From positions 1 through 64,000 of the forward strand of contig NZ_JADDJF010000015.1 in assembly GCF_017811755.1 (NCBI RefSeq): a stretch of DNA of 64,000 nt. Direction: 5' to 3'. Positions 6,017-61,810 of this stretch are shown piece after piece (positions within the stretch are counted from its first letter, which is position 1; every line of letters starts with the position of its first letter). The position numbers and the translations under genes were made by a program. The notes under the pieces are model-generated. The model had not been told where the DNA came from and did no database searches. It worked only from the letters and a program-made list of their open reading frames with translations. The stretch comes from Pararhodobacter sp. SW119. GTDB lineage: Bacteria; Pseudomonadota; Alphaproteobacteria; Rhodobacterales; Rhodobacteraceae.

Positions 6017-6742
6017 TCAGATCGCCGGTCCAGCCGCCACGCGTGCCTGAAGCGCGGTCAGCAACGGGCGCCGCCGACCCCGCGTTCGCGCCAGATCGGC
6101 GGCGGCGACGAGGGGGGCGTCGTTCAGGCTTCGGGCGATCCCGCCGATGAACTGGCCTGCATAACCGGTTCGCCTGCCGTCGAGCAAAAGCGTCTGCGCC
6201 CGCTTCAGATCATCGTGCAGCGCCATCGGATCGGCGCCTCCGCTGCAGGCCCTGGCGATCGCCGTGCGCCGTGCCGCCGTCGCCGAGAGGAAGTCGCGGG
6301 CGAGGATCGATTCGGCCTCGACGATCGAAATGCCCAGGATCGTCTCCAGATGCGCGGCAAGGCCCAGCGGCTTGGCGCAGAAGGCATCCGCGCCGGCCGA
6401 AAGCGCGGCGCCGCGCCCCTCGGGATCACCGGACACCGCCACGATGCGTGGCCGGCGTGGCGTCAGCGCGGCCAGTTCGACGATCAGATCCAGGCCCGAT
6501 CCGTCGGGCAACCCCAGATCGATCAGGGCCAGTTCCGGCCTGTAGAGCCGCAAGTGCCTACGCGCCGCTGCGAGGGTTTCGACGCGACGCAGGCGGATAC
6601 CCGCCGCGCGGCAGATCAGGCGCACGGTCTCGGCCGCGAACCGGCTATCCTCGACCAGCAGCATCGTCTGCGGGCGCGGCATCACGGCAAGAAGAGCGGG
6701 CAGAACACCCAGCGGCGGCGTGCCGGGGGATGATGACGGCAT
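6017..6742 (-). CDS. Orphan response regulator, receiver domain plus unknown C-terminus
   Basis: A 241-residue protein with a receiver domain at about 25-140: the acidic pair Glu31-Asp32, predicted phosphoacceptor Asp75 in ALIDLGLPDGSG, and the conserved Lys124 in FCAKPLG. The C-terminal 100 residues are helical, rich in Ala and Arg, with no recognisable DNA-binding, diguanylate cyclase or HPt signature. No kinase gene is adjacent; the nearest is the hybrid kinase 9 kb away, which has its own receiver. GGAGGT 6 nt upstream (6749-6754) fixes the ATG start, and an in-frame TTG further up is rejected. It converges on metF across 37 nt. Confidence 0.82.
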   Translation of the reverse strand: MPSSSPGTPPLGVLPALLAVMPRPQTMLLVEDSRFAAETVRLICRAAGIRLRRVETLAAARRHLRLYRPELALIDLGLPDGSGLDLIVELAALTPRRPRIVAVSGDPEGRGAALSAGADAFCAKPLGLAAHLETILGISIVEAESILARDFLSATAARRTAIARACSGGADPMALHDDLKRAQTLLLDGRRTGYAGQFIGGIARSLNDAPLVAAADLARTRGRRRPLLTALQARVAAGPAI

Positions 6743-6865
6743 GGCAGCACCTCCATCCAAGGGAGCGAGCCTGCTTGGAATTCCCTAAGGCGCGGTTAAT
6801 CCGCGCAGCCGGGTTGCCATCGACCCGCCGGCGGACATATCACGATTGCACAATCGCAACGGAGA

Positions 6866-7276
6866 ATGCCTGTGATCGGTCGCTTGAATCATGTCGCCAT
6901 TGCCGTGCCGGACCTGGAGGCCGCGTCCGCGCAGTATCGCGGCACGCTGGGCGCCGAGGTCGGCCCGCCGCAGGACGAACCCGATCACGGTGTGACCGTG
7001 GTCTTCATCACCTTGCCGAACACCAAGATCGAGCTTCTGTATCCTTTGGGCGAGGAGAGCCCGATCAAGGGATTTCTCGAGAAGAACCCGGCGGGCGGGA
7101 TCCACCATATCTGCTATGAAGTGCAGGATATCATCGCGGCCCGCGACCGGCTCAAGGCGGCGGGGGCACGCGTCCTCGGCACCGGCGAGCCGAAGATCGG
7201 CGCGCATGGAAAGCCCGTGCTGTTCCTGCATCCCAAGGATTTCAACGGCTGCCTCGTCGAACTGGAGCAGGTCTGA
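6866..7276 (+). CDS. mce: Methylmalonyl-CoA epimerase
   Basis: A 136-residue glyoxalase/VOC-fold protein that interconverts (S)- and (R)-methylmalonyl-CoA in propionyl-CoA assimilation. Visible family markers are the metal-ligand His in LNHVAIAV, KIELLYPLGEESP, GGIHHICYEV with the second metal His, GEPKIGAHGKPVLFLHPKDFNG and CLVELEQ. The length is normal. GGAG sits only 4 nt before the ATG but 10 nt before an in-frame GTG at 6872, so translation may begin at that GTG (IGRLNHV). The stop overlaps the next ATG (TGATG), so mce and the DUF1467 gene are translationally coupled. Confidence 0.94.
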   Translation: MPVIGRLNHVAIAVPDLEAASAQYRGTLGAEVGPPQDEPDHGVTVVFITLPNTKIELLYPLGEESPIKGFLEKNPAGGIHHICYEVQDIIAARDRLKAAGARVLGTGEPKIGAHGKPVLFLHPKDFNGCLVELEQV

Positions 7277-7548
7277 TGACCGTCTTTTCGGGTTTTGTGC
7301 TTTACGCGGTCCTTTGGTTCCTGACCTTGTTCCTGGTCTTGCCATTGCGGCTTACCACCCAAGGGGATGCGGGTTCGGTCGTGCCGGGCACGCCGTCTTC
7401 GGCGCCGCAGGACGCGCAGATGCGCAAGCGGTTGACCATCACCACGATCGCAAGCTTCGTCATCTGGGCGATCGTTGCCGCGATCATCCTGTCGGGCTTG
7501 GTCGGCATCGACGACATCGATTTCCTATACCGCGCGACCCGGGGTTGA
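7276..7548 (+). CDS. DUF1467 small membrane protein
   Basis: A 90-residue protein with two predicted transmembrane helices (about 3-26 and 54-76) joined by a polar loop containing a Gln/Asp-rich segment and MRKRLTITT. The pattern LYAVLWFLTLFLVLPLRL, then the second helix, fits the DUF1467 family, which is widespread in alphaproteobacteria and has no known function. It overlaps the mce stop codon by one base. The coupling suggests a role tied to methylmalonyl-CoA epimerase or simple cotranscription; nothing in the sequence shows which. It converges on the nitroreductase gene with 3 nt between stops. Confidence 0.88.
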   Translation: MTVFSGFVLYAVLWFLTLFLVLPLRLTTQGDAGSVVPGTPSSAPQDAQMRKRLTITTIASFVIWAIVAAIILSGLVGIDDIDFLYRATRG

Positions 7549-7551
7549 AAT

Positions 7552-8142
7552 TCAATCCTCGACCCAGCGGGTGATCGATGCGACGTCGGGGCGCGGACGC
7601 TCTGGCGGGGTCGCGTCGGTGGTGCCGATGTGAATGAAGCCCGCGACCTTCTCGGTCGGTGAAAGGCCCAGTCCACGCGCGCAGAACTCATGGTCATGGG
7701 CGGCGAACCCGGTAAGCCAGCACGCGCCGTACCCTTGGGCGAGGGCGGCGTTGACCAGGGACAGGCAGACCGCGCCGGCGGAGAGCAACTGCTCGACCTC
7801 GGGGATCTTGTCAGAGGGTTTGGGCGCGGCGATGACCGCCACCGCGAAGGGTGAATCGCGGAACGTGGCGGCGGCCTTCTCGGTCTTCTCGGGTGCCTCG
7901 CCCAGCGCCAGGCCGCGTTCCGCGCAGAGCGTGCCCAGCCGGGCGAGCGCGGCCTGCTCCAGCACCACGAATCGCCAGGGTTCGAGTTTTCCATGGTCGG
8001 GAACGCGGGCGGCTGCCGTCAGTAGCCGGGTCAGCACTGTACGATCCGGTGCGGGCGCGCGCAGCATCTTGGCCGGACGGGAACGGCGCGACAGAAGAAA
8101 CTCCAGAACCTCGGGTCGGGCGGGGGGCGGAAGGTCGGTCAT
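7552..8142 (-). CDS. Nitroreductase family protein (YdjA-like)
   Basis: A 196-residue FMN-dependent nitroreductase-fold protein. The N-terminal RRSRPAKMLRAPAPDR motif binds the FMN phosphate in this family; AARVPDHGKLEPWRFVV is the YdjA-type segment, and GFIHIGT the closing FMN contact. Such proteins are homodimeric NAD(P)H oxidoreductases; the physiological substrate is unknown. Length fits the YdjA subgroup. GGAGA lies 3 nt before the ATG at MTDLPPP; the frame runs open upstream in a low-complexity Arg/Pro region without start support. It is divergent from the pcaD-like gene by about 140 nt. Confidence 0.88.
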   Translation of the reverse strand: MTDLPPPARPEVLEFLLSRRSRPAKMLRAPAPDRTVLTRLLTAAARVPDHGKLEPWRFVVLEQAALARLGTLCAERGLALGEAPEKTEKAAATFRDSPFAVAVIAAPKPSDKIPEVEQLLSAGAVCLSLVNAALAQGYGACWLTGFAAHDHEFCARGLGLSPTEKVAGFIHIGTTDATPPERPRPDVASITRWVED

Positions 8143-48111: not shown

Positions 48112-51910
<3,799 letters not shown>

Positions 51911-51991
51911 CGACGGTCGGATCCTCGGTTCTGCGCAGACCCGACAGGTAGAGCACGAGCAACGTGAAGGAAATGGAGAGATTCTTGACAT

Positions 51992-52014
51992 GAACATGAA
52001 TGGGTTTCATGTTC
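51992..52014. promoter_or_regulatory. MetR site upstream of the methionine synthase operon
   Basis: GAACATGAA (51992-52000), a 5-nt spacer and TTCATGTTC (52006-52014) form a perfect 9-bp inverted repeat. Its core TGAA-TGGGT-TTCA (51997-52009) matches the MetR consensus TGAA-N5-TTCA exactly. It lies 87-99 nt upstream of the start codon, a usual activator position. Confidence 0.75.
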
Positions 52015-52098: not shown

Positions 52099-54126
52099 CT
52101 ACGGGGATGCCGCGCGCGTCCGGTTTGCCATCCAGGTCAGGGCGATCGAGGGCAAGCCGACGAGGAGCCCGATGAGCGACATGTGCGTATGCGTCAGCCC
52201 CAGTCCGATCGCACCGGGCGACGCGAAGAAGAGGCCGCCGATGAAGAGGCTGAAGCGCAGCGCGAATCCGGCGAGGCCCGCGTGCATCGCTCCGATGCCG
52301 GTGATGTAACCCTGCAGGGCCGAGCCGATGAAATAGATGCCGACGATGGCGGTGCAGAAGACCGTGGCGACCTCGGCGATGGAGCCCTGGCCGATCAGCG
52401 CCGGGTTGAGCACGAAGAAGAACGGGATGATGTAGATCACGCTGCCCAGCCGCATCGAGGCGACCGCCGCGCCCATCGGGCTGGTCCCCGCGACCGTCGC
52501 CGCCGCGAAGGCCCCCAGTGCGACCGGCGGCGTGATGAAGGACACCATGCCCCAGTAGAGGATGAAGAGGTGCACGGCCAGCGGATCGAGGCCGACGCGG
52601 ATCAGCGCCGGCGCCAGCACGACGGCCAGGAAGATGTAGCAGGCGGTGACCGTCATCCCCATGCCGAAGATGAAGGCGGTGACCGCGCCCATCAGCAGAA
52701 GCGGCAGCGCCTCGTTGCCCGCAAGGAACACCAAGTCGTTGACCAGCGTGCCGGCCAGGCCCGTGGCCGAAAACGCCCCGACCACCAGACCCACGCCAAG
52801 AAGCAGCGCGACCAGTTCGGCGAGGGAGCGCCCAACGTTCACGAAAAGGTCGACAAAGCCCTTCACGCTGAAACGTGTCGAAGGGAAGAGCTGGTTGATC
52901 GCCAGCAGAAGCGCGGTGGCGTAGAAGGGCGCGATCGTCTCCTGCCGGCGGAACATCATGAAATAGATCAGGACGGCGAAGACGACGATGTAGGGCCAGC
53001 CCTCCTTCAGCGTCGCGCGGACGGTGGGCAGTTCGTCCTTTGGCATGCCCTTCAGGCCCTTGCGCCCGGCATAGGCATCGAGCTGCACGAAGATCCCGAA
53101 ATAAAACAGGATCGACGGGATGGCCGCGGCGAGCACGATTTCGGCATAGGGGCGGCCGAGGAAGGACGCCATGATGAAGGCGGTGGCGCCCATGACCGGC
53201 GGCATCAGCACCCCGCCGGTGGAGGCGCAGGCCTCGGTCCCGGCGGCGTACTTCGCGCTGAAGCCCGACTTCTTCATCGCCGGAATGGTCACCGTGCCGG
53301 TGGTCATCACGTTCGAGATGACGCTGCCCGACATCGAGCCCATGAAGCCCGAGGCGAAGATCGCGACCTTGCCCGCCCCGCCGCGGAACCGGCCGACCAG
53401 CGCGAAGGCGAGGTCGTTGAAGAACCTGCCGCCGCCGGTGAACTGCAGCGTCGCGCCGAACAGGATGAAGCCGATGACAAGCTGTCCGAACGACCGCATC
53501 GGGATCCCCAGCGCGCTTTCGCTCGAGATGACGTGAAAGACCACCGTGTCGTAGAAGGAGGACGAAAAGCCCTGGATCGGGCCGGGAACGCGGTCCGCGA
53601 CGGTGGGGTAGATCGAGAAGAGCAGCACCACCACGAAGATGATCATGCCGCCCGTGCGCCGCGCCCCTTCGAGGATCAGAAGCCAGAACGCGACGGAGAA
53701 GTAGAAGGCGGTCTGCGGCGCGCCGTATTCCCAGCCCCGCATCAGCGCGCGTTCGCTGTTGGCGACGAAATAGCCCACCACCACGATCGAGGCGAGCGCC
53801 AGCACCAGGTCGTACCAGGGCACGCGATCCATCGGCGCGGTTTTCCAGGCCGGGAAGGTCAGGAAGGTGATGAACAGAAACAGCAGCGACAGGATGTAGA
53901 GGTATTGCGGGTCAAGGAGCGCGAAGCCGATCAGCTGCAGATTGAAAAGCTGGTTGACCGACAGCAGAACCCCGGCCGCCGTCGTAACCGCGACGATCGT
54001 GCGAAACGGCTCGGGCAGGATGCGGCGGCGCAACTCGGCCGCGATGGCCTCGTTGGCGGCGGCGAGGGCCGCGGCTTGATCGGCCTCCGACGTACCCGGC
54101 GACGGCCTGGGGTCCCGCTCTGCCAT
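52099..54126 (-). CDS. TRAP transporter fused permease (TAXI type)
   Basis: A 675-residue inner-membrane protein with many transmembrane helices. It fuses a small DctQ-like N-terminal part to a large DctM-like part, as usual for TAXI-type TRAP systems. GSMSGSVISNVMTTGTVTIPAMKKSGFSAKYAAGTEACASTGGVLMPPVMGATAFIMA is the family signature. It is driven by an ion gradient and receives substrate from the TAXI receptor encoded 133 nt upstream. GGAGGA 8 nt upstream supports the ATG over an adjacent TTG. It is divergent from the BKACE operon, which probably breaks down its substrate. Confidence 0.93.
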   Translation of the reverse strand: MAERDPRPSPGTSEADQAAALAAANEAIAAELRRRILPEPFRTIVAVTTAAGVLLSVNQLFNLQLIGFALLDPQYLYILSLLFLFITFLTFPAWKTAPMDRVPWYDLVLALASIVVVGYFVANSERALMRGWEYGAPQTAFYFSVAFWLLILEGARRTGGMIIFVVVLLFSIYPTVADRVPGPIQGFSSSFYDTVVFHVISSESALGIPMRSFGQLVIGFILFGATLQFTGGGRFFNDLAFALVGRFRGGAGKVAIFASGFMGSMSGSVISNVMTTGTVTIPAMKKSGFSAKYAAGTEACASTGGVLMPPVMGATAFIMASFLGRPYAEIVLAAAIPSILFYFGIFVQLDAYAGRKGLKGMPKDELPTVRATLKEGWPYIVVFAVLIYFMMFRRQETIAPFYATALLLAINQLFPSTRFSVKGFVDLFVNVGRSLAELVALLLGVGLVVGAFSATGLAGTLVNDLVFLAGNEALPLLLMGAVTAFIFGMGMTVTACYIFLAVVLAPALIRVGLDPLAVHLFILYWGMVSFITPPVALGAFAAATVAGTSPMGAAVASMRLGSVIYIIPFFFVLNPALIGQGSIAEVATVFCTAIVGIYFIGSALQGYITGIGAMHAGLAGFALRFSLFIGGLFFASPGAIGLGLTHTHMSLIGLLVGLPSIALTWMANRTRAASP

Positions 54127-54259
54127 CAATGTCCTCCGATGCGGACCGCTTGTCCCGGATGGCCGGCGGGCCGCGACGGCCCGCCGGGTCGCGCCGCAGC
54201 GTCAGGCGGCGGCGCGCAATGGGGCGCGCAAGGGGCCAGGGCCACCCTGCGCGCTGGCC

Positions 54260-55432
54260 TCAGGGTTGGAACACGACATCCAGGCCGGCATCTTCAAGCC
54301 CGGCGGCGCGCGCTTCCATCCAGCCCGACAGGAACTCCTCGTCGTCGGAGGGGGCGTCTTCCATGTAAGCGTCCCAGGCCTTGCGCAGGACGCGCTGACG
54401 CTCGATCAGCATCTCGTTGTGGGCCTGCGCCTCCTCGGACCAGACCCCGATCTCCTCGTAGTAGCGGATCGCGCCGTCGTGGTAGGGAACCGCCCACTGG
54501 AAGTTCTGACGGTCCAGCGCCCAGCCGCCGGCGCCCGGTGCGGCATCGGCGTATTCGTCGAACAACTCGACCATCGCCTTGGTCATGTTGTAGGTCAGAT
54601 CGACGTCCTGGTCGGCATAGGCGATCAGCACGGGATAGGGATAGGCCGCCCCCTCATGCGGGTTTTCCGCCGAGATGCCGGCGCCTTCGGTCGCCATGTT
54701 CGGCGCGAAGAAGGGCGCAGCACTCTGCAGCCTTGCCCAACCTTCCTCGTCGTCATGGGGGAACTCGACCCAGGTCAGGCCGCGCGGGCTGGCCTCCAGC
54801 TGGTAGGCCGGGCCCGAGGTCGTGGTGGCGAAGGCCGCGTCGACCTGGTTGTTGATGATGCCTTCCCAAGAGGCGCCGAAGCCGGGGAATTCCACCCGTT
54901 CGACATCGTCCCAGGTCATGCCGGCGAAGGACAGCATCGCGGTGATGTTCTCGTTCAGCGCCGGCGCGCCCACGACCCAGGCGACGCGCTTGCCGCGCAG
55001 ATCCTCGACGAGTCGCACGCCGGTGTCGGCGGCCACGCCGATGCCGAGGTTGCCGTCGTCGTTCGACGCGATCAGCACGCGGACATCCTGGGGCCCCCAC
55101 TCGCGGCCGCCGAATTCGAACACGCCCTCCTGCGAGAAGTAGCTTGCGCCGATGCCGGTCGCCGAGAAGTCGACGCGGCGCTGCTGCAGCGGCACCTGGC
55201 GGGCCACGTCGTTGCGCCCGGGCAGGACGCGCAGGTCCGAGCCGACCACGTTGCGCAGCGCCGAGCCGATGGCGACGGCCTGGTTGTAGCCGCCCGACCC
55301 CGTGTCATAGGCGGTCCAGCTGACCGTTGCCGGCAGCTCGATGTCTTGCGCGGCCACGACCGTGGCCGAAAGTGCGGTGAAGCTCAGGGCCGTCGCCCCG
55401 GCCAGCAGTCCGAGTCGAGTCGAGTTGTTCAT
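54260..55432 (-). CDS. TAXI-family TRAP transporter solute receptor
   Basis: A 390-residue periplasmic binding protein. Residues 1-28 form a signal peptide ending AAQ. The TAXI features are SWTAYDTGSGGYNQAVAIGSALRN near the N-terminus, RVLPGRNDVARQVPLQQRRVDFSATG, LRGKRVAWVVGAPALNENITAML and NNQVDAAFATTTSGPAYQLEASPRGLTWVEFPHDDEEGW. GGAGGA 7 nt upstream fixes MNNSTRL. TAXI receptors often bind glutamate or other carboxylates, but this ligand is unknown. It is first in a two-gene operon with the permease. Confidence 0.93.
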   Translation of the reverse strand: MNNSTRLGLLAGATALSFTALSATVVAAQDIELPATVSWTAYDTGSGGYNQAVAIGSALRNVVGSDLRVLPGRNDVARQVPLQQRRVDFSATGIGASYFSQEGVFEFGGREWGPQDVRVLIASNDDGNLGIGVAADTGVRLVEDLRGKRVAWVVGAPALNENITAMLSFAGMTWDDVERVEFPGFGASWEGIINNQVDAAFATTTSGPAYQLEASPRGLTWVEFPHDDEEGWARLQSAAPFFAPNMATEGAGISAENPHEGAAYPYPVLIAYADQDVDLTYNMTKAMVELFDEYADAAPGAGGWALDRQNFQWAVPYHDGAIRYYEEIGVWSEEAQAHNEMLIERQRVLRKAWDAYMEDAPSDDEEFLSGWMEARAAGLEDAGLDVVFQP

Positions 55433-55496
55433 CAGTTTTTCCTCCCCAGGGTACGTGTTCGACGGATCGCTCCGCCCCGCGTTTGTCGCGGACACA

Positions 55497-55548
55497 TGGC
55501 GCCACCGTAGCGACCCCGACTCCGGCGAACAAGACTTTTGGGCGCCAC
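55497..55548. promoter_or_regulatory. Repeated GGCGCCAC sites in the TAXI-BKACE divergent gap
   Basis: GGCGCCAC occurs at 55498-55505 (within palindrome TGGCGCCA, 55497-55504) and at 55541-55548, 43 bp apart, about four helical turns. They lie midway between the divergent TAXI and BKACE genes. A regulator binding both could coordinate uptake and breakdown, but GGCGCC is common in high-GC DNA. Confidence 0.3.
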
Positions 55549-55640
55549 ATTCCCGCGACGCGCGCGGCGCCGGCGGAAACCCGACAGGGCTTGCGTCCCC
55601 GTCGCGGGGCGTCAATGATGCCGCCCGGGGAGAAGTCGAA

Positions 55641-56519
55641 ATGTCCAGACCTGTCGTCATCACCTGCGCCATCACCGGCGCCTTCGGTACCAAGGACCGC
55701 AATCCGGCGCTGCCGGTGACGCCCGAGGAAATCTCGGCCTCGGCGCTGGAAGCGGCGGCGGCGGGCGCGGCGGTGGTCCATATCCATGTCCGCGATCCGC
55801 AGACCCAGGCGCCGAGCATGGACCTCGCGCTCTACCGCGAAACGGTCGAGCGGATTCGCGCGCGCAACACCCAGGTGATCCTGAACCTGACCTGCGGGTC
55901 CGGCGCGCGCTTCGTGCCCGGCGCGCCGGACCCGCGCTCGCCCGGTGAGGGCACGACGCTGAGCACCCCGGCCGAACGGGTGGCGCATGTCGAGGCACTG
56001 CGCCCCGAGATCGCGTCGCTGGATGTCGGCAGCATGAATTTCGGCGAGCATGTCTTCGTCAATACGCCCGCGCATCTGCGCGAGATGGCCGGGCGGATGC
56101 GCGCCGCCGGCGCGAAGCCCGAGATCGAGGTCTTCGATCTGGGCCATATCGCGCTGGCGAAAAAGCTGATCGCCGAGGGGCATCTGGATGCGCCGCCGCT
56201 TTTCCAGATCTGCCTGGGCATTCCGTACGGCGCCCCGGCGACGCCGCAGACCCTGATGGCGATGCAGGCGCAACTGCAGGCCGATGCGATCTGGTCGGGC
56301 TTCGGCATCGCGGCGCAGCAGTTCCCGATGGTGGCGATGGTGGCGGCGCTGGGCGGGCATGTGCGTGTCGGGCTCGAGGACAATCTTTACCTCTCGAAGG
56401 GGCAGCTTGCCCCCGGCAATGGCGCGCTGGTGGACCGCGCGGCGACGATCCTGGACCTGACCGGGCACAGTGTCGCCACGCCGGACGAGGCGCGAGAGAT
56501 ATTCGGGCTTCCGGCATGA
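55641..56519 (+). CDS. Beta-keto acid cleavage enzyme (BKACE, DUF849)
   Basis: A 292-residue TIM-barrel protein of the BKACE family, which uses acetyl-CoA to split a beta-keto acid into acetoacetate and a new acyl-CoA. Zn ligands His47 and His49 are in VVHIHVRDP; ITCAITGAFGTKDRNPALPVTPEEI, ILNLTCGSG, ASLDVGSMNFG, IEVFDLGHIALAKKL and VRVGLEDNLYLSKGQLAPGNGALV are conserved features. Family members act on 3-keto-5-aminohexanoate, dehydrocarnitine, beta-ketoglutarate and others; I cannot read the substrate. GGGGAG is upstream of the ATG. It overlaps the next SDR gene (ATGA) and leads a five-gene operon. Confidence 0.92.
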   Translation: MSRPVVITCAITGAFGTKDRNPALPVTPEEISASALEAAAAGAAVVHIHVRDPQTQAPSMDLALYRETVERIRARNTQVILNLTCGSGARFVPGAPDPRSPGEGTTLSTPAERVAHVEALRPEIASLDVGSMNFGEHVFVNTPAHLREMAGRMRAAGAKPEIEVFDLGHIALAKKLIAEGHLDAPPLFQICLGIPYGAPATPQTLMAMQAQLQADAIWSGFGIAAQQFPMVAMVAALGGHVRVGLEDNLYLSKGQLAPGNGALVDRAATILDLTGHSVATPDEAREIFGLPA

Positions 56520-57277
56520 TCGCGGCCGATCTCTCGGGCAAGCGCGCGCTGGTCACCGGGGGGGCCTCGGGCATCGGCCTGGCGACGGCGCGCGCGCTGG
56601 TGCGATGCGGCGCGCAGGTGGCGATCAATCACCTGGCCGACGACCCGCGCGGACCCCAGGAGGCCGCGCGCCTGGGTGCGCTGAGCGCCCCCGGCGACGT
56701 ATCGGTCGCGGGCGCGGCCGAGGATATGGTCGCCCGCGCGATCGACACGCTCGGCGGCCTGGATATCCTGATCAACAACGCCGGCACCCCGGTTTCGACC
56801 GAACCCGTTCCCTACGCCGATCTGGACCGCCTGGACGAGCCGTTCTGGGACGCGATCCTGTCCACCAACCTTGTGGGCCCGTTCCGCTGCACCCGTGCCG
56901 CCGAACCGGCGCTGCGGGCCGCACAGGGCTGCATCGTCGCCACCGCCTCGATCGCCGGGATGGGCGGGCAGGCGAGTTCGCTTGCCTATGGCGCCAGCAA
57001 GGCCGGCCTTATCAACCTGACCCGCAACCTGGCGCAGGCGCTCGCGCCGGACGTCCGGGTGAATGCCGTGGCCCCGGGCCTGACGCGCACGCCCTGGACC
57101 GATGGCTGGCCCGAGGCGCGCAAGGAACGCTCGCTGGAGAATACCCTGCTTCGCCGTTTCGTGGAGCCCGAGGATATCGCCGATGCGATGATCTTCCTCT
57201 GCGCGCAGACCGCGATCACCGGGCAGACCATCGTCGTCGACTGCGGCCGCAACTTCACCCTGACCCCCAATCGCTGA
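56516..57277 (+). CDS. Short-chain dehydrogenase/reductase
   Basis: A 253-residue classical SDR. The NAD(P)-binding motif is TGGASGIGLAT, followed by NNAG in LDILINNAGTP and the catalytic YxxxK in AYGASKAG with the Ser in VATASIAG. RVNAVAPGLTRTPWTD and FLCAQTAITGQTIVVDCG close the fold. The residue after the second strand is Asn-His rather than Arg, leaving cofactor choice open. It overlaps the BKACE stop. In context it may oxidise a beta-hydroxy acid to the beta-keto acid that BKACE cleaves (inference). Confidence 0.9.
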   Translation: MIAADLSGKRALVTGGASGIGLATARALVRCGAQVAINHLADDPRGPQEAARLGALSAPGDVSVAGAAEDMVARAIDTLGGLDILINNAGTPVSTEPVPYADLDRLDEPFWDAILSTNLVGPFRCTRAAEPALRAAQGCIVATASIAGMGGQASSLAYGASKAGLINLTRNLAQALAPDVRVNAVAPGLTRTPWTDGWPEARKERSLENTLLRRFVEPEDIADAMIFLCAQTAITGQTIVVDCGRNFTLTPNR

Positions 57278-57310
57278 TCCCGGTCGCCGTGCCGTGAAAG
57301 GAGCCCCAGA

Positions 57311-58954
57311 ATGACCCAGCGCGCCGCCGATCTGTTGGTCGATTGTCTTGTCGCCCAGGGGACCGACCGTATCTTCTGCGTGCCGGGCGAAAGCTATCTG
57401 CCGGTTCTCGACGCGCTGCACGGGCGGTCCGACATCCAGACCGTGACCTGCCGGCACGAAGGCGGCGCGGCGTTCATGGCGCTGGCCGATGCCAAGCTCA
57501 CCCATCGGCCGGGCGTCGCCTTCGTCAGCCGCGGGCCGGGTGCGACCAACGCCGCCATCGGCGTGCATTCGGCCGAGCAGGATGCCGCCCCCCTCATCCT
57601 GTTCGTCGGCCACGTTCCGCGCAGCCAGATCGGGCGCGGCGCGTTTCAGGAGGTCGACTACGCCAAGACCTTCGCCGACATGGCCAAGGCCGTGCTGATG
57701 GTCGACGACCCCGAGCGTATCCCCGAACTCGTCGCCCGCGCCTATACCGTCGCGCAGACGCCGACACCGGGGCCGGTCGTCGTGGTGCTGCCCGAGGACG
57801 TGCTGGAAGCGCCGAGCGCGGCGCGGCCCCAGGACCCGACCCCGGCGCCCGCCGCCTGCGACGGTGGCGAGGCCGCGGCCGAGGTCGCCCGCCGGATCGC
57901 GGGCGCACGCCGCCCGCTGCTGATCGCTGGCGTCCGGCTGGCCGCGTCCGAGGGGCGGGCGGCGCTGCTGGCGGCGGCCGAGGCGTTGGGCGTGCCGGTC
58001 GTGCTCAGCTTCAAGATGCAGCACCTCTTTCCCAATCGTCATCCGCTTTACGCCGGGCACCTGGGCTTCAAGATCCCCGCCCCGCACCGCGAGCTTCTGG
58101 CCGAGGCCGACCTGGTCCTTGCCGTCGGCACCCGGCTGGGCGAGGTGGTCAGCCAGAACTACCGGTTTCCGCGCGCGCCGGTGCCGGACCAGCCGCTGAT
58201 CCATGTCCACGACGATCCGCGCCACCTGGGCCGGGTCCACAAGCACGACCTGGCGGTGGCGGCGGACCCGACCGCGTTCCTGCACCGCCTCGCCGCTGCC
58301 GCGACCGGCCGCGCGCCCGCCGACTGGGCGGAACGCCTGCACGCCTTTGTGGCCCAACGCATGCCCTGGCAGCCGCCGGCAAACGGCGCGCTGGACCCCG
58401 GCCCGGTCGTCGCGCGGCTGGCCGAGGTCTTGCCCGACGACGCGATCCTGGTCACCGATGCCGGCAACTTCTCAGGCTGGCTGCACCGGCATTTCCCCTT
58501 CGGCGCGGGGCACGAACTGATCGGCGCTGTCGGTGGCGCGATGGGCCTTGGCGTGCCCGCCGCGGTCGCCGCCGGTCTACGCGCGCCGGGGCGCAGCGTC
58601 GTCACCTTCGTCGGCGATGGCGGCATGCTGATGACCGGGGCCGAGCTGGCGACGGCGGTGCGCCACCGGGTCCCGGTGCGCATCTTCGTGTCCAACAACG
58701 GCAGCTACGGCACGATCCGCATGCACCAGGAGCGCGACTTCCCCGGCCGTGTCGCCGGCACCGAACTCGCCAATCCCGACTTCGCGCGACTGGCCGAGGC
58801 CTACGGCGCCCGCGGCCTGACCATCAGCACGCCGGAGGAGGCCGCGCGGGTGACCGACGAGGCCCTTGCCACCGACGGCCCCGTCGTCGTCGACATCCGC
58901 ACCGAGGTGGAGAACATCACCGCCTTCGCCACGCTCGCCGATCTGCGCAACTGA
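57311..58954 (+). CDS. Thiamine diphosphate-dependent enzyme (acetolactate synthase-like)
   Basis: A 547-residue ThDP enzyme with the three usual domains. The catalytic Glu50 is in TCRHEGGAAFMALADA; RGPGATNAAIGVHSAEQDAAPLILFVG and GRGAFQEVDYAKTFADMAKA match the acetolactate synthase superfamily; the central domain has PVVLSFKMQHLFPNRHPLYAGHLGFK; the ThDP motif is GDGG at 435-438 continuing to SNNGSYGTI. It is not a biosynthetic IlvB by context: there is no ilvN, and it lies between SDR genes. It could be a 2-keto acid decarboxylase or carboligase. AAAGGAG precedes the ATG. Confidence 0.88.
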   Translation: MTQRAADLLVDCLVAQGTDRIFCVPGESYLPVLDALHGRSDIQTVTCRHEGGAAFMALADAKLTHRPGVAFVSRGPGATNAAIGVHSAEQDAAPLILFVGHVPRSQIGRGAFQEVDYAKTFADMAKAVLMVDDPERIPELVARAYTVAQTPTPGPVVVVLPEDVLEAPSAARPQDPTPAPAACDGGEAAAEVARRIAGARRPLLIAGVRLAASEGRAALLAAAEALGVPVVLSFKMQHLFPNRHPLYAGHLGFKIPAPHRELLAEADLVLAVGTRLGEVVSQNYRFPRAPVPDQPLIHVHDDPRHLGRVHKHDLAVAADPTAFLHRLAAAATGRAPADWAERLHAFVAQRMPWQPPANGALDPGPVVARLAEVLPDDAILVTDAGNFSGWLHRHFPFGAGHELIGAVGGAMGLGVPAAVAAGLRAPGRSVVTFVGDGGMLMTGAELATAVRHRVPVRIFVSNNGSYGTIRMHQERDFPGRVAGTELANPDFARLAEAYGARGLTISTPEEAARVTDEALATDGPVVVDIRTEVENITAFATLADLRN

Positions 58955-58964
58955 GGGGGAACGC

Positions 58965-59687
58965 ATGACCATCGAAGGCGCCACCATCGTCACCGGCTCC
59001 AGCCGCGGCATCGGCCTTGCCATCGCGCGCCAACTGGTAGCGCAGGGGCACGAGGTTGTCGGCATCGCGCGCAGCCAGCCGGGGCCCGAGGGCTTCACTA
59101 CCTATGCCGCCGATCTTACCGATGCGGCGCAGACCGAGGCGGTGCTGGCCGAGGTCGTCAAGCGCCATCGCGTGCTGCGGCTGGTCAACAACGCCGGCGT
59201 TTCCGAACTGGCAAGCCTTGAAGCGGCCACCGCGGCGCAGCTCGACCTGCTGGTCGCGGTCCATCTGCGCGCGCCCATGCAGGCGATGCAGGCCGTGCTG
59301 CCGGGTATGCGCGCCGCCGGTTTCGGCCGGATCGTGAACATCGGCAGCCGCGCCGCACTGGGCAAGCCCGGACGGTTGCTCTACGGGGCGACCAAGGCGG
59401 GACTGGCCTCGATGACGCGCACCGCGGCGCTGGAACTGGCCGCCGATGGCATCACCGTCAACTGCATCGCCCCCGGCCCCATCGAGACGGAGCTTTTTGC
59501 CGCCGGCAACCCGCCCGACTCGGAGGCGCGGCGCCGCTTCACCGCCGGCATTCCCGTCGCGCGCGTCGGCACCCCCGAGGAGATCGCGCATGCCTGCGGC
59601 TACTTCCTCGATGCGCGGGCGGGCTTCACCACCGGACAGTTGCTGCATGTCTGCGGCGGCATGTCCATCGGCGCCACCCTGACCTGA
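58965..59687 (+). CDS. Short-chain dehydrogenase/reductase
   Basis: A 240-residue classical SDR with VTGSSRGIGLAIAR, the cofactor-contact VVGIARSQPG, RLVNNAGVSE and the catalytic YGATKAG with Ser in GSRAALG. Arg after the second strand (GIARS) suggests NADP use. The closing CIAPGPIETELF and TTGQLLHVCGGMS are typical. It differs clearly from the other SDR in this operon, so two separate redox steps are likely. GAGGGGGA precedes the ATG, 10 nt after the ThDP gene stop. Confidence 0.9.
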   Translation: MTIEGATIVTGSSRGIGLAIARQLVAQGHEVVGIARSQPGPEGFTTYAADLTDAAQTEAVLAEVVKRHRVLRLVNNAGVSELASLEAATAAQLDLLVAVHLRAPMQAMQAVLPGMRAAGFGRIVNIGSRAALGKPGRLLYGATKAGLASMTRTAALELAADGITVNCIAPGPIETELFAAGNPPDSEARRRFTAGIPVARVGTPEEIAHACGYFLDARAGFTTGQLLHVCGGMSIGATLT

Positions 59688-59698
59688 GGGGGATGACA

Positions 59699-61810
59699 AT
59701 GACCGGCCCGCTTTCCCCGCTCATCTCGCCCGCGTCGGTGGCGATCCTCGGCGCCTCGGACGATCCGGCGCGGATCGGCGGGCGGCCGCTGGCCTATCTG
59801 CGCGCGGCCGGCTTCGCCGGGCAGATCTATCCGGTCAACCCCAAGCGGCAGACGGTGCAGGGCCTGCCGGCCTATGCCCGCGTCGCCGACCTGCCCACCG
59901 CGCCGGATGCCGCCATCGTCGCCCTGCCGGCGGCGCTGGTCGAAAACGCCGTCACCGAACTGGCCGAACGTGGCGCGCGCGCCTGCGTGATCTTTTCTTC
60001 TGGATTTTCCGAAGTGGGCGAGACCGCGCAGCAGGACCGGATTGCCGCCATCGCCCGCGATGCCGGCATGCGTCTTCTGGGTCCGAACTGCCTGGGCGTC
60101 TTCGATGTGCCCAGCCGTTTCTACGCCAGTTTCACCACCACGCTCGATCGCGGCACCCCGACCGAGGGCAACCTCTCCATCGTCAGCCAGAGCGGGGCCT
60201 TCGGCAGCCATCTCTATTTTCTGGCCCGTCAGCGCGGCCTTGGCATGCGCAGCTGGATCACCACCGGCAACGAGGCCGACGTCACAGTCGCCGAGTGCCT
60301 GGAGCATTTCGCCCAGGACCCCGGCACCAAGGTCATCATGGCCTATGCCGAGGGGTTCCGCGACGGCGACCGCCTGGTCGCCGCGCTGGAGGCCGCCCGG
60401 CAGGCCGGCAAGCCCGTGGTCTTCATGAAGGTCGGCCGGTCCGAGATCGGCGCCGCGGCGGCAAGCTCGCACACCGCCGCCCTGGCCGGGGCCGATGCTG
60501 TCTGCGATGCCGTGCTGCGCCAGTACGGGGCGCATCGCGCCCGCACCACGCAGGAGTTGATCGACATCGCCTATGCGGCCAGTTCGGGCGCCCTGCCGGC
60601 CGGCCGGCGGTTGGGTATCGTGACGATCTCGGGTGGCGTCGGCGTCCTGATGACCGACGAGGCCAGCGACCAGGGTCTGGACGTCTCGCCGATGCCCGCG
60701 TCGGCGCAGGCGGCGCTGAAGGCGCGGTTGCCCTTCGCCGGCGTGCGCAACCCCATCGACATCACCGGGCAGGCCTTCAACGACCCCGACCTGCTGCGCG
60801 ACAACCTCGACTTCGTGCTCGCCCAGGGCGGCTATGACGCCGTCGCGGCGTTTCTGACCACGGTTCCCGGATCGGCGGCGAACCGGGCGCCGATGCGGGA
60901 CGCGCTGCAGGCGGTTCGCACCGCGCATCCCAAATTTCCGCTGATCCTGTCGATGGTCGTCCCGGACGATCTGCGGCGCGAATACGAGGCGATGGGCTAC
61001 GCCGTCTTCGACGATCCCTCGGCCGCCGTCGCCGCGATTGCCGGCATGGCCCGCCTGCGCGAGGCCTTCGCGCGCTCGGCCCCGGCCGCCGGGTCCAGGG
61101 GCAGTGCCGAGGCGCTGCCACCCGGCGCGCTGGACGAACAGGACGCCAAGCGGCTGCTGGCCGCCGCCGGGTTGCCCGTGCCGGACGAACACCTCGCCAC
61201 CACGCCCGAGGAGTCCGTCGCCGCCTGGCGCGCCTGCGAACGGCCCGTCGCGCTGAAACTCGTCTCGCCCGACATTGCGCACAAGACCGAGGTCGGCGGC
61301 GTCGTGCTCGGCCTCGACGACGAAGCGGCGATCCTTGACGCCCATCGCGCCATCCTGGCGCGCGCGCGGGAACACGCGCCTTCGGCGCGGGTTTCCGGCG
61401 TGCTGGTGTCGCCGATGGAGGCCGGTGCCGCCGCCGGCGGGATCGAGACGATCATCGGCGTGATGCGCGACCCCGCGTTCGGCCCGGTCGTGATGCTGGG
61501 CCTGGGCGGCGTCCTGGTCGAGGTGATGGGCGATGTCACTTTCCGGCGCGCGCCGTTCGACACCGACGAGGCGATGCGGATGATCGCCGAGTTGCGCGGC
61601 GCCGCGGTCTTCGACGGCGTCCGCGGACGCCCGCCCGCCGATACCGCCGCGCTGGCCGAGGCGCTGGCCGCGCTCTCCCGCTTCGCCGATGCGCATGCCG
61701 ACGAGATCGAAAGCATCGACGTCAACCCGTTCCTCGTCCGGGCAAGGGGGCAGGGCGCCGTCGCACTGGATGCGCTGATCGTGCGCCGGGCCGACACCGC
61801 CGAAGGTTAG
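59699..61810 (+). CDS. ADP-forming acyl-CoA synthetase (acetyl-CoA synthetase type)
   Basis: A 703-residue single-chain NDP-forming acyl-CoA synthetase. The CoA-binding domain has SVAILGASDDPARIGGRPL and IYPVNPKRQTVQG; the succinyl-CoA synthetase-like domains have IVSQSGAFGSHL, the phospho-His region SSHTAALAGADAV and TISGGVGVLMTDEA; the C-terminal ATP-grasp domain has PVALKLVSPDIAHKTEVGGVVLGL and IDVNPFLV. It interconverts a carboxylic acid and its CoA ester. I use the second ATG because GGGGG lies 6 nt before it and none before the first. Last in the operon, it would activate the acid product or recycle CoA (inference). Confidence 0.92.
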   Translation: MTGPLSPLISPASVAILGASDDPARIGGRPLAYLRAAGFAGQIYPVNPKRQTVQGLPAYARVADLPTAPDAAIVALPAALVENAVTELAERGARACVIFSSGFSEVGETAQQDRIAAIARDAGMRLLGPNCLGVFDVPSRFYASFTTTLDRGTPTEGNLSIVSQSGAFGSHLYFLARQRGLGMRSWITTGNEADVTVAECLEHFAQDPGTKVIMAYAEGFRDGDRLVAALEAARQAGKPVVFMKVGRSEIGAAAASSHTAALAGADAVCDAVLRQYGAHRARTTQELIDIAYAASSGALPAGRRLGIVTISGGVGVLMTDEASDQGLDVSPMPASAQAALKARLPFAGVRNPIDITGQAFNDPDLLRDNLDFVLAQGGYDAVAAFLTTVPGSAANRAPMRDALQAVRTAHPKFPLILSMVVPDDLRREYEAMGYAVFDDPSAAVAAIAGMARLREAFARSAPAAGSRGSAEALPPGALDEQDAKRLLAAAGLPVPDEHLATTPEESVAAWRACERPVALKLVSPDIAHKTEVGGVVLGLDDEAAILDAHRAILARAREHAPSARVSGVLVSPMEAGAAAGGIETIIGVMRDPAFGPVVMLGLGGVLVEVMGDVTFRRAPFDTDEAMRMIAELRGAAVFDGVRGRPPADTAALAEALAALSRFADAHADEIESIDVNPFLVRARGQGAVALDALIVRRADTAEG

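What the first reader, a model, noticed from the sequence alone, without database searches (positions are those of the whole stretch)
52099..61810. Undefined catabolic cluster: TAXI-TRAP, BKACE, two SDRs, ThDP enzyme, ADP-forming acyl-CoA synthetase
A TAXI-TRAP uptake operon is divergent from five tightly spaced genes. A consistent reading is uptake of a hydroxy- or keto-carboxylate, oxidation to a beta-keto acid by one SDR, cleavage with acetyl-CoA by BKACE to acetoacetate and an acyl-CoA, and use of the remaining parts by the ThDP enzyme, second SDR and synthetase. The combination of BKACE with a ThDP decarboxylase/carboligase-type enzyme does not match a pathway I recognise.
Basis: inference. 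Interest (0 to 1): 0.65.

Follow-up and report, generated by a model that had tools for sequence, protein, structure and literature searches.

The report
Uncharacterised dicarboxylate-type catabolic gene cluster
This bacterial DNA carries an uptake system beside five enzyme genes that look like a compact, mixed version of a recurring but unstudied set of genes, perhaps for taking up and breaking down a small two-ended organic acid, and one of its enzymes shows a likely charge switch for what it can bind.

Summary
Observation confirmed: TAXI receptor and fused TRAP permease (52099-55432, minus) are divergent from BKACE, SDR1, ThDP enzyme, SDR2 and ADP-forming acyl-CoA synthetase (55641-61810, plus; gaps -4, 33, 10, 5 bp). 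No other locus examined has BKACE with this ThDP enzyme: none within 4 kb of 66 BKACE sequences, no BKACE in 80 ThDP loci. But every part recurs beside the same kind of TAXI-TRAP. Of the five receptors nearest the window's, four sit with acyl-CoA dehydrogenase, ligase and IclR, three with 3-hydroxyacyl-CoA dehydrogenase, two with a 3-oxoadipyl-CoA thiolase. ThDP+SDR2+synthetase, SDR1, or BKACE+SDR1 are variable members. I read the window as a compact hybrid: uptake of a dicarboxylate-like acid, SDR oxidation to a beta-keto acid, and BKACE cleavage in place of dehydrogenase plus thiolase. In 66 BKACEs the residue matching BsfD Arg91 is acidic near carnitine-dehydrogenase-like genes (17 of 27 acidic, 0 of 33 Arg); the window has Arg, suggesting an anionic distal group. 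The ThDP step and exact substrate remain unknown. First reading partly supported.

The parts
52099..54129 (-). TRAP transporter fused permease (probable start 54126)
   Evidence: PF06808 320.8 bits; TIGR02123 554.6 vs 320.65; start
54260..55432 (-). TAXI-family solute receptor
   Evidence: TIGR02122 208.7 vs 84.35 (longer ORF 54260-55819; start at 55432). In the low-scoring alignment to VcGluP (40 bits) the places of Q93 and E125, which bind the amino group of glutamate (PMC11574862, passages), are Gly in the window; the numbering offset is my own inference.
55641..56519 (+). BKACE-family (PF05853, DUF849) enzyme; Arg90 = BsfD Arg91, Phe165 = BsfD Phe166
   Evidence: 346.2 bits vs 24.8; alignment to 9ZSC and 3C6C; site residues
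56516..57277 (+). SDR1, classical short-chain dehydrogenase; recurring partner of BKACE and of TAXI-TRAP
   Evidence: PF13561/PF00106; 57-64% orthologues next to BKACE in L123, L126, L127, L129, L130; 70-72% orthologues next to TAXI, without BKACE, in L142, L143, L146
57311..58954 (+). ThDP-dependent enzyme, PRK08199 subfamily (not acetolactate synthase)
   Evidence: 644.8 vs 539 for PRK08199; 342.9 vs 538.35 for TIGR00118 acetolactate synthase
58965..59687 (+). SDR2, short-chain dehydrogenase; recurring partner of ACD and often of the ThDP enzyme
   Evidence: PF13561; 50-56% relatives in L042, L045, L047, L072, L144, L146, L147, L160
59693..61810 (+). ADP-forming acyl-CoA synthetase (alpha-beta fused; no acetyltransferase domain found)
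   Evidence: PF13380, PF13607, PF13549; best PDB match 4-hydroxybutyrate-CoA ligase 8WZU 366 bits; no NCBIfam equivalog cut-off met

Best explanation
It is a catabolic cluster put together from two modules that in the other alphaproteobacteria examined occur separately, each in some genomes beside the same kind of TAXI-TRAP transporter. The transporter imports a dicarboxylate-like acid (inferred). Branch 1 (inferred, best supported): an SDR, most likely SDR1, oxidises the 3-hydroxy acid to a 3-oxo acid. BKACE, whose Arg90 suits a negatively charged far end, then transfers it with acetyl-CoA to give an acyl-CoA (succinyl-CoA if the acid is 3-oxoadipate) plus acetoacetate. This would replace the CoA-bound 3-hydroxyacyl-CoA dehydrogenase and 3-oxoadipyl-CoA thiolase steps of related clusters. 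Branch 2 (weakly inferred): the ThDP enzyme breaks a carbon bond next to a keto group, most likely decarboxylating a 2-oxo acid, with SDR2 before or after it. ACD then makes, or recovers ATP from, the CoA ester of the product, or activates the acetoacetate from branch 1. Shown here: the genes, their families, the recurrence of the modules, the thiolase family in some relatives, and the residue pattern in BKACE. Not shown: any reaction, the cargo, or co-expression.
For: Receptor tree: the nearest rows to the window receptor by path are L142, L143, L146, L127 and L144. Four of these five (not L127) carry the acyl-CoA dehydrogenase ACADc (70-73% to the L052 reference), AMP-ligase and IclR; three (L146, L127, L144) carry HCDH; two (L144, L146) carry hydratase and 3-oxoadipyl-CoA thiolase; L127 carries BKACE and SDR1. 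Six of six thiolases tested from such clusters (L144, L122, L126, L146, L147, L166) pass the cut-off of TIGR02430 3-oxoadipyl-CoA thiolase, 650-705 vs 597 bits. BKACE sits in L122 beside TAXI-TRAP, that thiolase and HCDH, and in L127 beside SDR1, TAXI-TRAP and HCDH. Among 28 loci with ThDP at 50% or more, 11 have the TAXI, 11 the ACD and 16 at least one; among 52 loci with ThDP below 50%, none has either. Residue at BsfD Arg91 in 66 BKACEs: R 33, D 26, S 2, one each of E, G, I, M, V. A carnitine-dehydrogenase-like gene lies within 4 kb of 17 of 27 acidic ones and 0 of 33 Arg ones. BsfD Arg91 lies near the phosphonate of its ligand (PMC12871164, passages). Published TAXI cargoes that I saw are glutamate, 2-oxoglutarate and o-phthalate (passages).
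Against: The whole five-gene set was found nowhere else, so the modules may serve different substrates. The link to 3-oxoadipyl-CoA thiolase is thin: 7 of 52 receptor-tree relatives have it, none of the 28 public ThDP loci has it at 60% or more, and of 33 Arg-type BKACEs one has it within 4 kb (L122) and L126 has it about 5 kb away. Arg at the BKACE site is common (33 of 66) in many contexts, so it is not specific to dicarboxylates. A 3-oxoadipate BKACE model exists (NF053568), and the window protein scores 218.1 against a cut-off of 350. Of the 52 receptor-tree relatives, 24 show none of the marker genes, some because the contig is short, so receptor similarity alone does not fix the cargo. 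Another form of the ThDP cluster (L045, L047, L057, L072) carries a different thiolase with a ChsH2-type OB-fold partner (thiolase tested for L037, the same contig as L057; OB-fold tested for L045; the rest by BLAST or eye). In the own genome no IclR was found (no positive control run), the best ACADc match is 41%, and the thiolase (64%) lies in a phenylacetate operon by eye, so the upstream CoA steps of the relatives seem to be missing here. VcGluP, a well-studied TAXI receptor, does not bind adipate.
Confidence: 0.36

Rival explanations
1. A sugar-acid or hydroxy-acid pathway like deoxyribonate catabolism: SDR1 makes a 3-keto sugar acid, BKACE yields a 2-hydroxyacyl-CoA (such as glyceryl-CoA) and acetoacetate, ACD recovers ATP from the acyl-CoA, and the ThDP enzyme handles the released fragment.
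For: SDR + BKACE is genetically required for deoxyribonate in Pseudomonas simiae (PMC6365646, passages). L123 has BKACE-SDR1 next to an enolase-superfamily-like gene and a tricarboxylate-type transporter (named by eye), and L042 has the closest ThDP (62%) with SDR2 near an IlvD/Edd-type dehydratase (named by eye).
Against: The receptor's five nearest relatives sit with CoA beta-oxidation genes or BKACE, and I saw no sugar-acid genes there. No lactonase, glycerate kinase or MFS gene is among the genes of 52-62 kb.
Confidence: 0.2
2. The two modules serve two different substrates and are neighbours only because genes for hydroxy/keto acid use accumulate beside the transporter.
For: BKACE-SDR1 and ThDP-SDR2-ACD were apart in every other locus examined; BKACE-SDR1 also occurs with no TAXI in the stretch fetched (L123, L129, L130).
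Against: Tight spacing (-4, 33, 10, 5 bp) with the ThDP gene between SDR1 and SDR2 suggests one transcript, and both modules associate in different genomes with the same kind of TAXI-TRAP and HCDH.
Confidence: 0.22
3. The BKACE protein does not cleave but acetylates its substrate, as BsfD does, giving a beta-diketone after loss of CO2, and the ThDP enzyme and SDRs work on that diketone.
For: The closest solved structure by score is BsfD (9ZSC), and the window shares its Phe166, Arg91 and long loop; BsfD makes 2,4-dioxopentylphosphonate (PMC12871164, passages).
Against: Phe at this place is found in all 66 relatives examined, 17 of them beside carnitine-dehydrogenase-like genes, where a BKACE is taken to act on 3-dehydrocarnitine (PMC12482172, passages). 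So Phe does not mark the BsfD chemistry.
Confidence: 0.08
4. The ThDP enzyme is a ring-opening hydrolase like cyclohexane-1,2-dione hydrolase: SDRs oxidise an alicyclic diol carboxylate to a dione, ThDP opens it to an oxo acid, and ACD activates the acid toward 3-oxoadipyl-CoA.
For: It would explain two SDRs, a ThDP enzyme and a CoA ligase, with a 3-oxoadipyl-CoA thiolase in the same cluster in L144.
Against: By sequence the ThDP enzyme is far from cyclohexane-1,2-dione hydrolase (133.9 bits) and nearer to acetolactate synthases (269.8 bits). No aldehyde dehydrogenase is in the cluster.
Confidence: 0.08

Closest known systems
Oxidative deoxyribonate pathway of Pseudomonas simiae (SDR dehydrogenase + BKACE; PMC6365646, passages)
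   Same: An SDR in one operon with a BKACE is proposed to turn a 3-hydroxy acid into a 3-keto acid and cleave it with acetyl-CoA; the genetics are shown, the cleavage step was not shown directly.
   Different: There with MFS transporters, a lactonase and (elsewhere) glycerate kinase; here with TAXI-TRAP, a ThDP enzyme, a second SDR and an ADP-forming synthetase.
Carnitine catabolism with carnitine dehydrogenase and BKACE (PMC12482172, as cited there; L140 and relatives here)
   Same: Same BKACE subfamily, with the same Phe and long loop; the L140 protein is 55% identical to the window's.
   Different: BKACEs beside carnitine-dehydrogenase-like genes have Asp/Glu where the window has Arg (17 of 17); the window cluster has no carnitine dehydrogenase.
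BsfD of flavophos biosynthesis (9ZSC; PMC12871164, passages)
   Same: Closest solved relative by score; same Phe166, Arg91 and beta3 loop.
   Different: BsfD is a biosynthetic acetyltransferase in a phosphonate cluster; the window gene is in a transporter-linked catabolic-type cluster.
Dicarboxylate beta-oxidation with 3-oxoadipyl-CoA thiolase (dca/paa type, recalled) and TRAP uptake of azelaic acid (azeTSL, PMC10945470, passages)
   Same: In L144 and L146 a related TAXI-TRAP sits with ligase, acyl-CoA dehydrogenase, hydratase, HCDH, 3-oxoadipyl-CoA thiolase and an IclR regulator.
   Different: The window lacks all of these CoA steps and has SDR1 + BKACE + ThDP instead; the azelaic-acid system has separate small and large permease genes.

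Membership tests
BKACE / DUF849 (PF05853) | Match to the family profile above its cut-off | tested here: met
   346.2 vs 24.8 bits
BKACE / DUF849 (PF05853) | Zn ligands His-x-His and Glu (BsfD His48, His50, Glu247) | tested here: met
   H47, H49, E246 in the window protein
Canonical BKACE as described in PMC12871164 | Catalytic Tyr (Tyr145/Tyr173 of CcaKce/PdKce) | tested here: not met
   Phe165 in the window; Phe in 66 of 66 relatives, so the feature does not hold for this part of the family; cleavage is inferred, not shown
Canonical BKACE as described in PMC12871164 | Releases acetoacetate and acyl-CoA | not testable with these tools
   Needs an assay
3-oxoadipate:acetyl-CoA acetyltransferase (NF053568) | Equivalog cut-off | tested here: not met
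   218.1 vs 350 bits
TAXI-TRAP transporter | TAXI receptor plus single fused permease | tested here: met
   TIGR02122 and TIGR02123 cut-offs passed
TAXI-TRAP transporter | Cargo | not testable with these tools
   No close solved receptor: best match 40 bits
Acetolactate synthase | Equivalog cut-offs (TIGR00118, TIGR02418) | tested here: not met
   342.9 vs 538.35 and 262.9 vs 551.1
PRK08199 ThDP subfamily | Subfamily cut-off | tested here: met
   644.8 vs 539; the model's name gives no function beyond 'thiamine pyrophosphate protein'
Sulfoacetaldehyde acetyltransferase | Equivalog cut-off (TIGR03457) | tested here: not met
   235.7 vs 676.4
ADP-forming acyl-CoA synthetase | CoA-binding, Succ_CoA_lig and ATP-grasp_5 domains | tested here: met
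   substrate not given by any NCBIfam equivalog
Dicarboxylate CoA beta-oxidation cluster | Acyl-CoA dehydrogenase, hydratase, HCDH and 3-oxoadipyl-CoA thiolase beside the transporter | tested here: not met
   Met in L144 and L146; none lies in 52-62 kb of the window; own-genome copies are elsewhere or distant
Deoxyribonate oxidative pathway | SDR + BKACE | tested here: met
Deoxyribonate oxidative pathway | Lactonase, MFS transporter or glycerate kinase in the cluster | tested here: not met
   Not among the genes of 52-62 kb

The most novel reading that the evidence does not exclude
A TAXI-TRAP transporter for dicarboxylates longer than C5 feeds a pathway in which a dehydrogenase and a BKACE do, on the free acid, what HCDH and 3-oxoadipyl-CoA thiolase do on the CoA ester in related clusters. 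A ThDP enzyme of a subfamily without stated function supplies or trims the acid. The Arg/Asp position in BKACE would be the switch between anionic and cationic substrates.
Probability: 0.2. Interest if true: 0.55.

Novelty: new variant of a known kind. Interest (0 to 1): 0.4.

Why it matters
TAXI-TRAP transporters are called widespread but poorly understood (PMC11574862), the PRK08199 ThDP model names no function, and most BKACE substrates are, to my knowledge, unassigned. The cluster family described here gives testable partners for all three. The charge pattern at one BKACE residue is a simple rule that could be checked on enzymes already in hand. It also shows that the Phe seen in BsfD is ordinary in this part of the family (66 of 66), so it should not be used alone to predict the BsfD reaction.

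Tried and rejected
Rejected: acetolactate synthase, sulfoacetaldehyde acetyltransferase and 2-hydroxyacyl-CoA lyase for the ThDP enzyme. The equivalog cut-offs of the first two are not met; 2-hydroxyacyl-CoA lyase 1 scores 146 bits against 269.8 for the best acetolactate synthase.

Rejected: Phe165 as a sign of BsfD-type chemistry. It is present in all 66 relatives examined.

Led nowhere: promoter/terminator scan, tRNA scan (none), PDB searches with the two SDRs and ACD (generic), literature searches for the combination. Structure prediction was not used, because family membership was already clear.

Genes of other loci were called by a home-made script or as stop-to-stop frames and named by BLAST to references; 'has' and 'lacks' depend on the identity thresholds set. 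Names of AMP-ligase in loci other than L144, CaiB, MaoC, FAH, IlvD, cyclase and the L123 genes are by eye. The Fisher value (2e-8) treats related sequences as independent; the L140 row that supplied the carnitine-dehydrogenase reference is among the 17, and the own-genome L039 row is in at exactly 40%. L140's dehydrogenase is best matched by L-carnitine dehydrogenase but below its cut-off (368.2 vs 414). Thiolases of L148 and L169 were not tested.

Changed on checking: the number of receptor relatives without marker genes (24, not 20), the best same-genus ThDP identity (47%), the SDR2 range (50-56%), and the thin link to the thiolase, which is now told; for the last reason the confidence was lowered from 0.40 to 0.36 and the novel case from 0.22 to 0.20, and the two-substrate rival raised from 0.20 to 0.22.

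Full report
What is there. Seven genes at 52099-61810 are confirmed: a fused TRAP permease and a TAXI receptor on the minus strand, and BKACE, SDR1, ThDP enzyme, SDR2 and ADP-forming acyl-CoA synthetase (ACD) on the plus strand, with gaps of -4, 33, 10 and 5 bp. G+C (0.66-0.73) and third-position G+C (0.86-0.91) are near the rest of the window (0.67 and 0.87). Downstream lie an aldo-keto reductase and an M24 peptidase on the other strand, then transport and amine-type genes (by eye); they do not look part of it. No regulator was seen between the methionine synthase genes on the left and the aldo-keto reductase on the right.

Where it comes from. The genome is a 4.51 Mb assembly of 192 contigs. 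Among 17 same-genus genomes no ThDP match is above 47%. In the receptor tree all 20 own-family receptors fetched fall in a group of 29 rows (support 100/100) that does not hold the window's; its nearest rows are L142, L143, L146, L127 and L144 from other families. This suggests that the transporter at least came from outside the family (inference).

The ThDP module. The 80 ThDP loci kept from public genomes were compared. At 50% identity or more (28 loci) 11 have the same kind of TAXI, 11 have the ACD, 4 have SDR2, 11 have a 3-hydroxyacyl-CoA dehydrogenase (HCDH) or FadB-type protein, and 16 have TAXI or ACD; none has the 3-oxoadipyl-CoA thiolase at 60% or more. Below 50% (52 loci, many from Mesorhizobium) none has any of them at the thresholds set. 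None of the 80 has BKACE or SDR1 at 45% or more. Typical order: TRAP, TAXI divergent from ThDP, hydratase, HCDH, SDR2, ACD (L045, L047, L072). SDR2-ACD also occurs without ThDP (L147, L160).

The BKACE-SDR1 module. From 52 class matches (all fetched), 11 of 16 family matches and one paralogue in the own genome, 66 BKACE sequences in 64 loci were compared. SDR1 at 57-64% is adjacent in L123, L126, L127, L129 and L130, and one at 55% is near in L134. BKACE lies with TAXI-TRAP, HCDH and thiolase in L122, and with SDR1, TAXI-TRAP and HCDH in L127. No relative of the ThDP enzyme was found within 4 kb of any of the 66. In the same 385-genome sample, 10 of 39 BKACE-positive genomes other than the window's are also TAXI-positive, where 4.3 would be expected (hypergeometric 0.005, kinship ignored).

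What the relatives say about the substrate. Six of six thiolases tested from these clusters (L144, L122, L126, L146, L147, L166) pass the 3-oxoadipyl-CoA thiolase cut-off. The HCDH and hydratase of L144 and L146 pass the cut-offs of PRK08268 and PRK08138, general models of 3-hydroxyacyl-CoA dehydrogenase and enoyl-CoA hydratase. Together this points to a pathway that ends at 3-oxoadipyl-CoA, so to a dicarboxylate of six or more carbons or something that becomes one (inference). Against this: the thiolase is present in only 7 of 52 receptor-tree relatives and 2 of the 5 nearest, and in none of the 28 public ThDP loci; another form of the ThDP cluster carries a different thiolase with a ChsH2-type OB-fold protein (L045, L047, L057, L072); and 24 of the 52 relatives show none of the marker genes, some because of short contigs. 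In the own genome no IclR was found (no positive control run) and the best acyl-CoA dehydrogenase match is 41%. Its thiolase (64%) lies in what looks like a phenylacetate operon, and its HCDH match (53%) lies beside a different TRAP.

The BKACE active site. By score the nearest solved relatives are BsfD (9ZSC) and 3C6C. The Zn ligands are kept. At the place where the flavophos preprint reports a Tyr in canonical BKACEs and Phe166 in BsfD (PMC12871164, passages), the window has Phe, and so do all 66 relatives. Since 17 of these lie beside carnitine-dehydrogenase-like genes, where a BKACE is taken to act on 3-dehydrocarnitine (PMC12482172, passages), Phe alone does not argue against cleavage. 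At BsfD Arg91, which the preprint places near the phosphonate after the ligand flips, the window has Arg. The 66 relatives have R 33, D 26, S 2 and one each of E, G, I, M and V. Carnitine-dehydrogenase-like genes (40% or more to the L140 protein, within 4 kb) accompany 17 of 27 acidic and 0 of 33 Arg ones (Fisher 2e-8, relatedness ignored). I read this as a charge switch: acidic for a trimethylammonium group, Arg for an anionic group. It remains a correlation, the Arg half rests on BsfD alone, and the Arg type is found in many contexts that say nothing of dicarboxylates.

The receptor. The best solved relative is the glutamate receptor VcGluP at 40 bits. In that weak alignment the two places that bind the amino group of glutamate (Q93, E125) are Gly in the window (numbering offset inferred), which fits a ligand without an amino group. 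TAXI cargoes that I saw in papers are glutamate, 2-oxoglutarate and o-phthalate; VcGluP does not bind adipate (passages).

How it most likely works. Uptake of a dicarboxylate-like acid; an SDR (probably SDR1) makes the 3-oxo acid; BKACE with acetyl-CoA makes an acyl-CoA and acetoacetate, standing in for HCDH plus thiolase; ThDP, SDR2 and ACD form a second branch or an entry branch whose reaction I cannot fix. ACD might activate acetoacetate, but its presence with ThDP in genomes without a BKACE nearby argues that it belongs to the ThDP branch. Families and recurrence are shown; every reaction is inferred.

Known or new. All single parts belong to known families. SDR + BKACE is known for deoxyribonate (PMC6365646, passages). 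TRAP uptake with beta-oxidation of a longer dicarboxylate is proposed for azelaic acid (PMC10945470, passages), with a three-gene TRAP. I found no paper on the combination: searches are the searches, over open-licence papers only; Bastard et al. 2014, the main BKACE study, was not read and is known to me only through citations and recall. I therefore call it a new variant of a known kind, of moderate interest.

Noticed in passing
window 48112-51997 (-): Methionine synthase is split into two genes: a homocysteine S-methyltransferase part (50837-51997) and a pterin, B12 and activation part (48112 to about 50850). The break is at a domain border with separate starts, so it looks like a natural split rather than a frameshift.
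   Followed up: partly
L039 (own genome C1:375000-390000), BKACE near 6737-7687: A second BKACE of the same genome (50%) has Asp at the switch position and lies with an SDR, an acyl-CoA dehydrogenase, an ACD and a carnitine-dehydrogenase-like gene (40%, borderline), so it may act on a cationic substrate.
   Followed up: partly
L142 2146-3567, L146 2516-3952, L045 3556-5004: A membrane protein of about 480 aa (the three taken as alike by eye) stands between IclR and the acyl-CoA dehydrogenase or ligase in several TAXI clusters; the one from L146 matched no NCBIfam or Pfam family at the thresholds used.
   Followed up: partly
L043, L052, L056, L063: ThDP orthologues also occur beside acyl-CoA dehydrogenases and a phosphotransferase-family gene (PF01636 for the L052 copy, the others by eye), an arrangement that recalls 4-hydroxyacyl-CoA degradation (the comparison is recalled).
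   Followed up: no
L240 (own genome C149:84500-104000): A phosphonate-type ABC transporter (by eye) is followed by AMP-ligase, a nitronate-monooxygenase-like gene, a thioesterase (both by eye) and two acyl-CoA dehydrogenases (67% and 48% to those of L045), about 10 kb or more from a ThDP paralogue.
   Followed up: no
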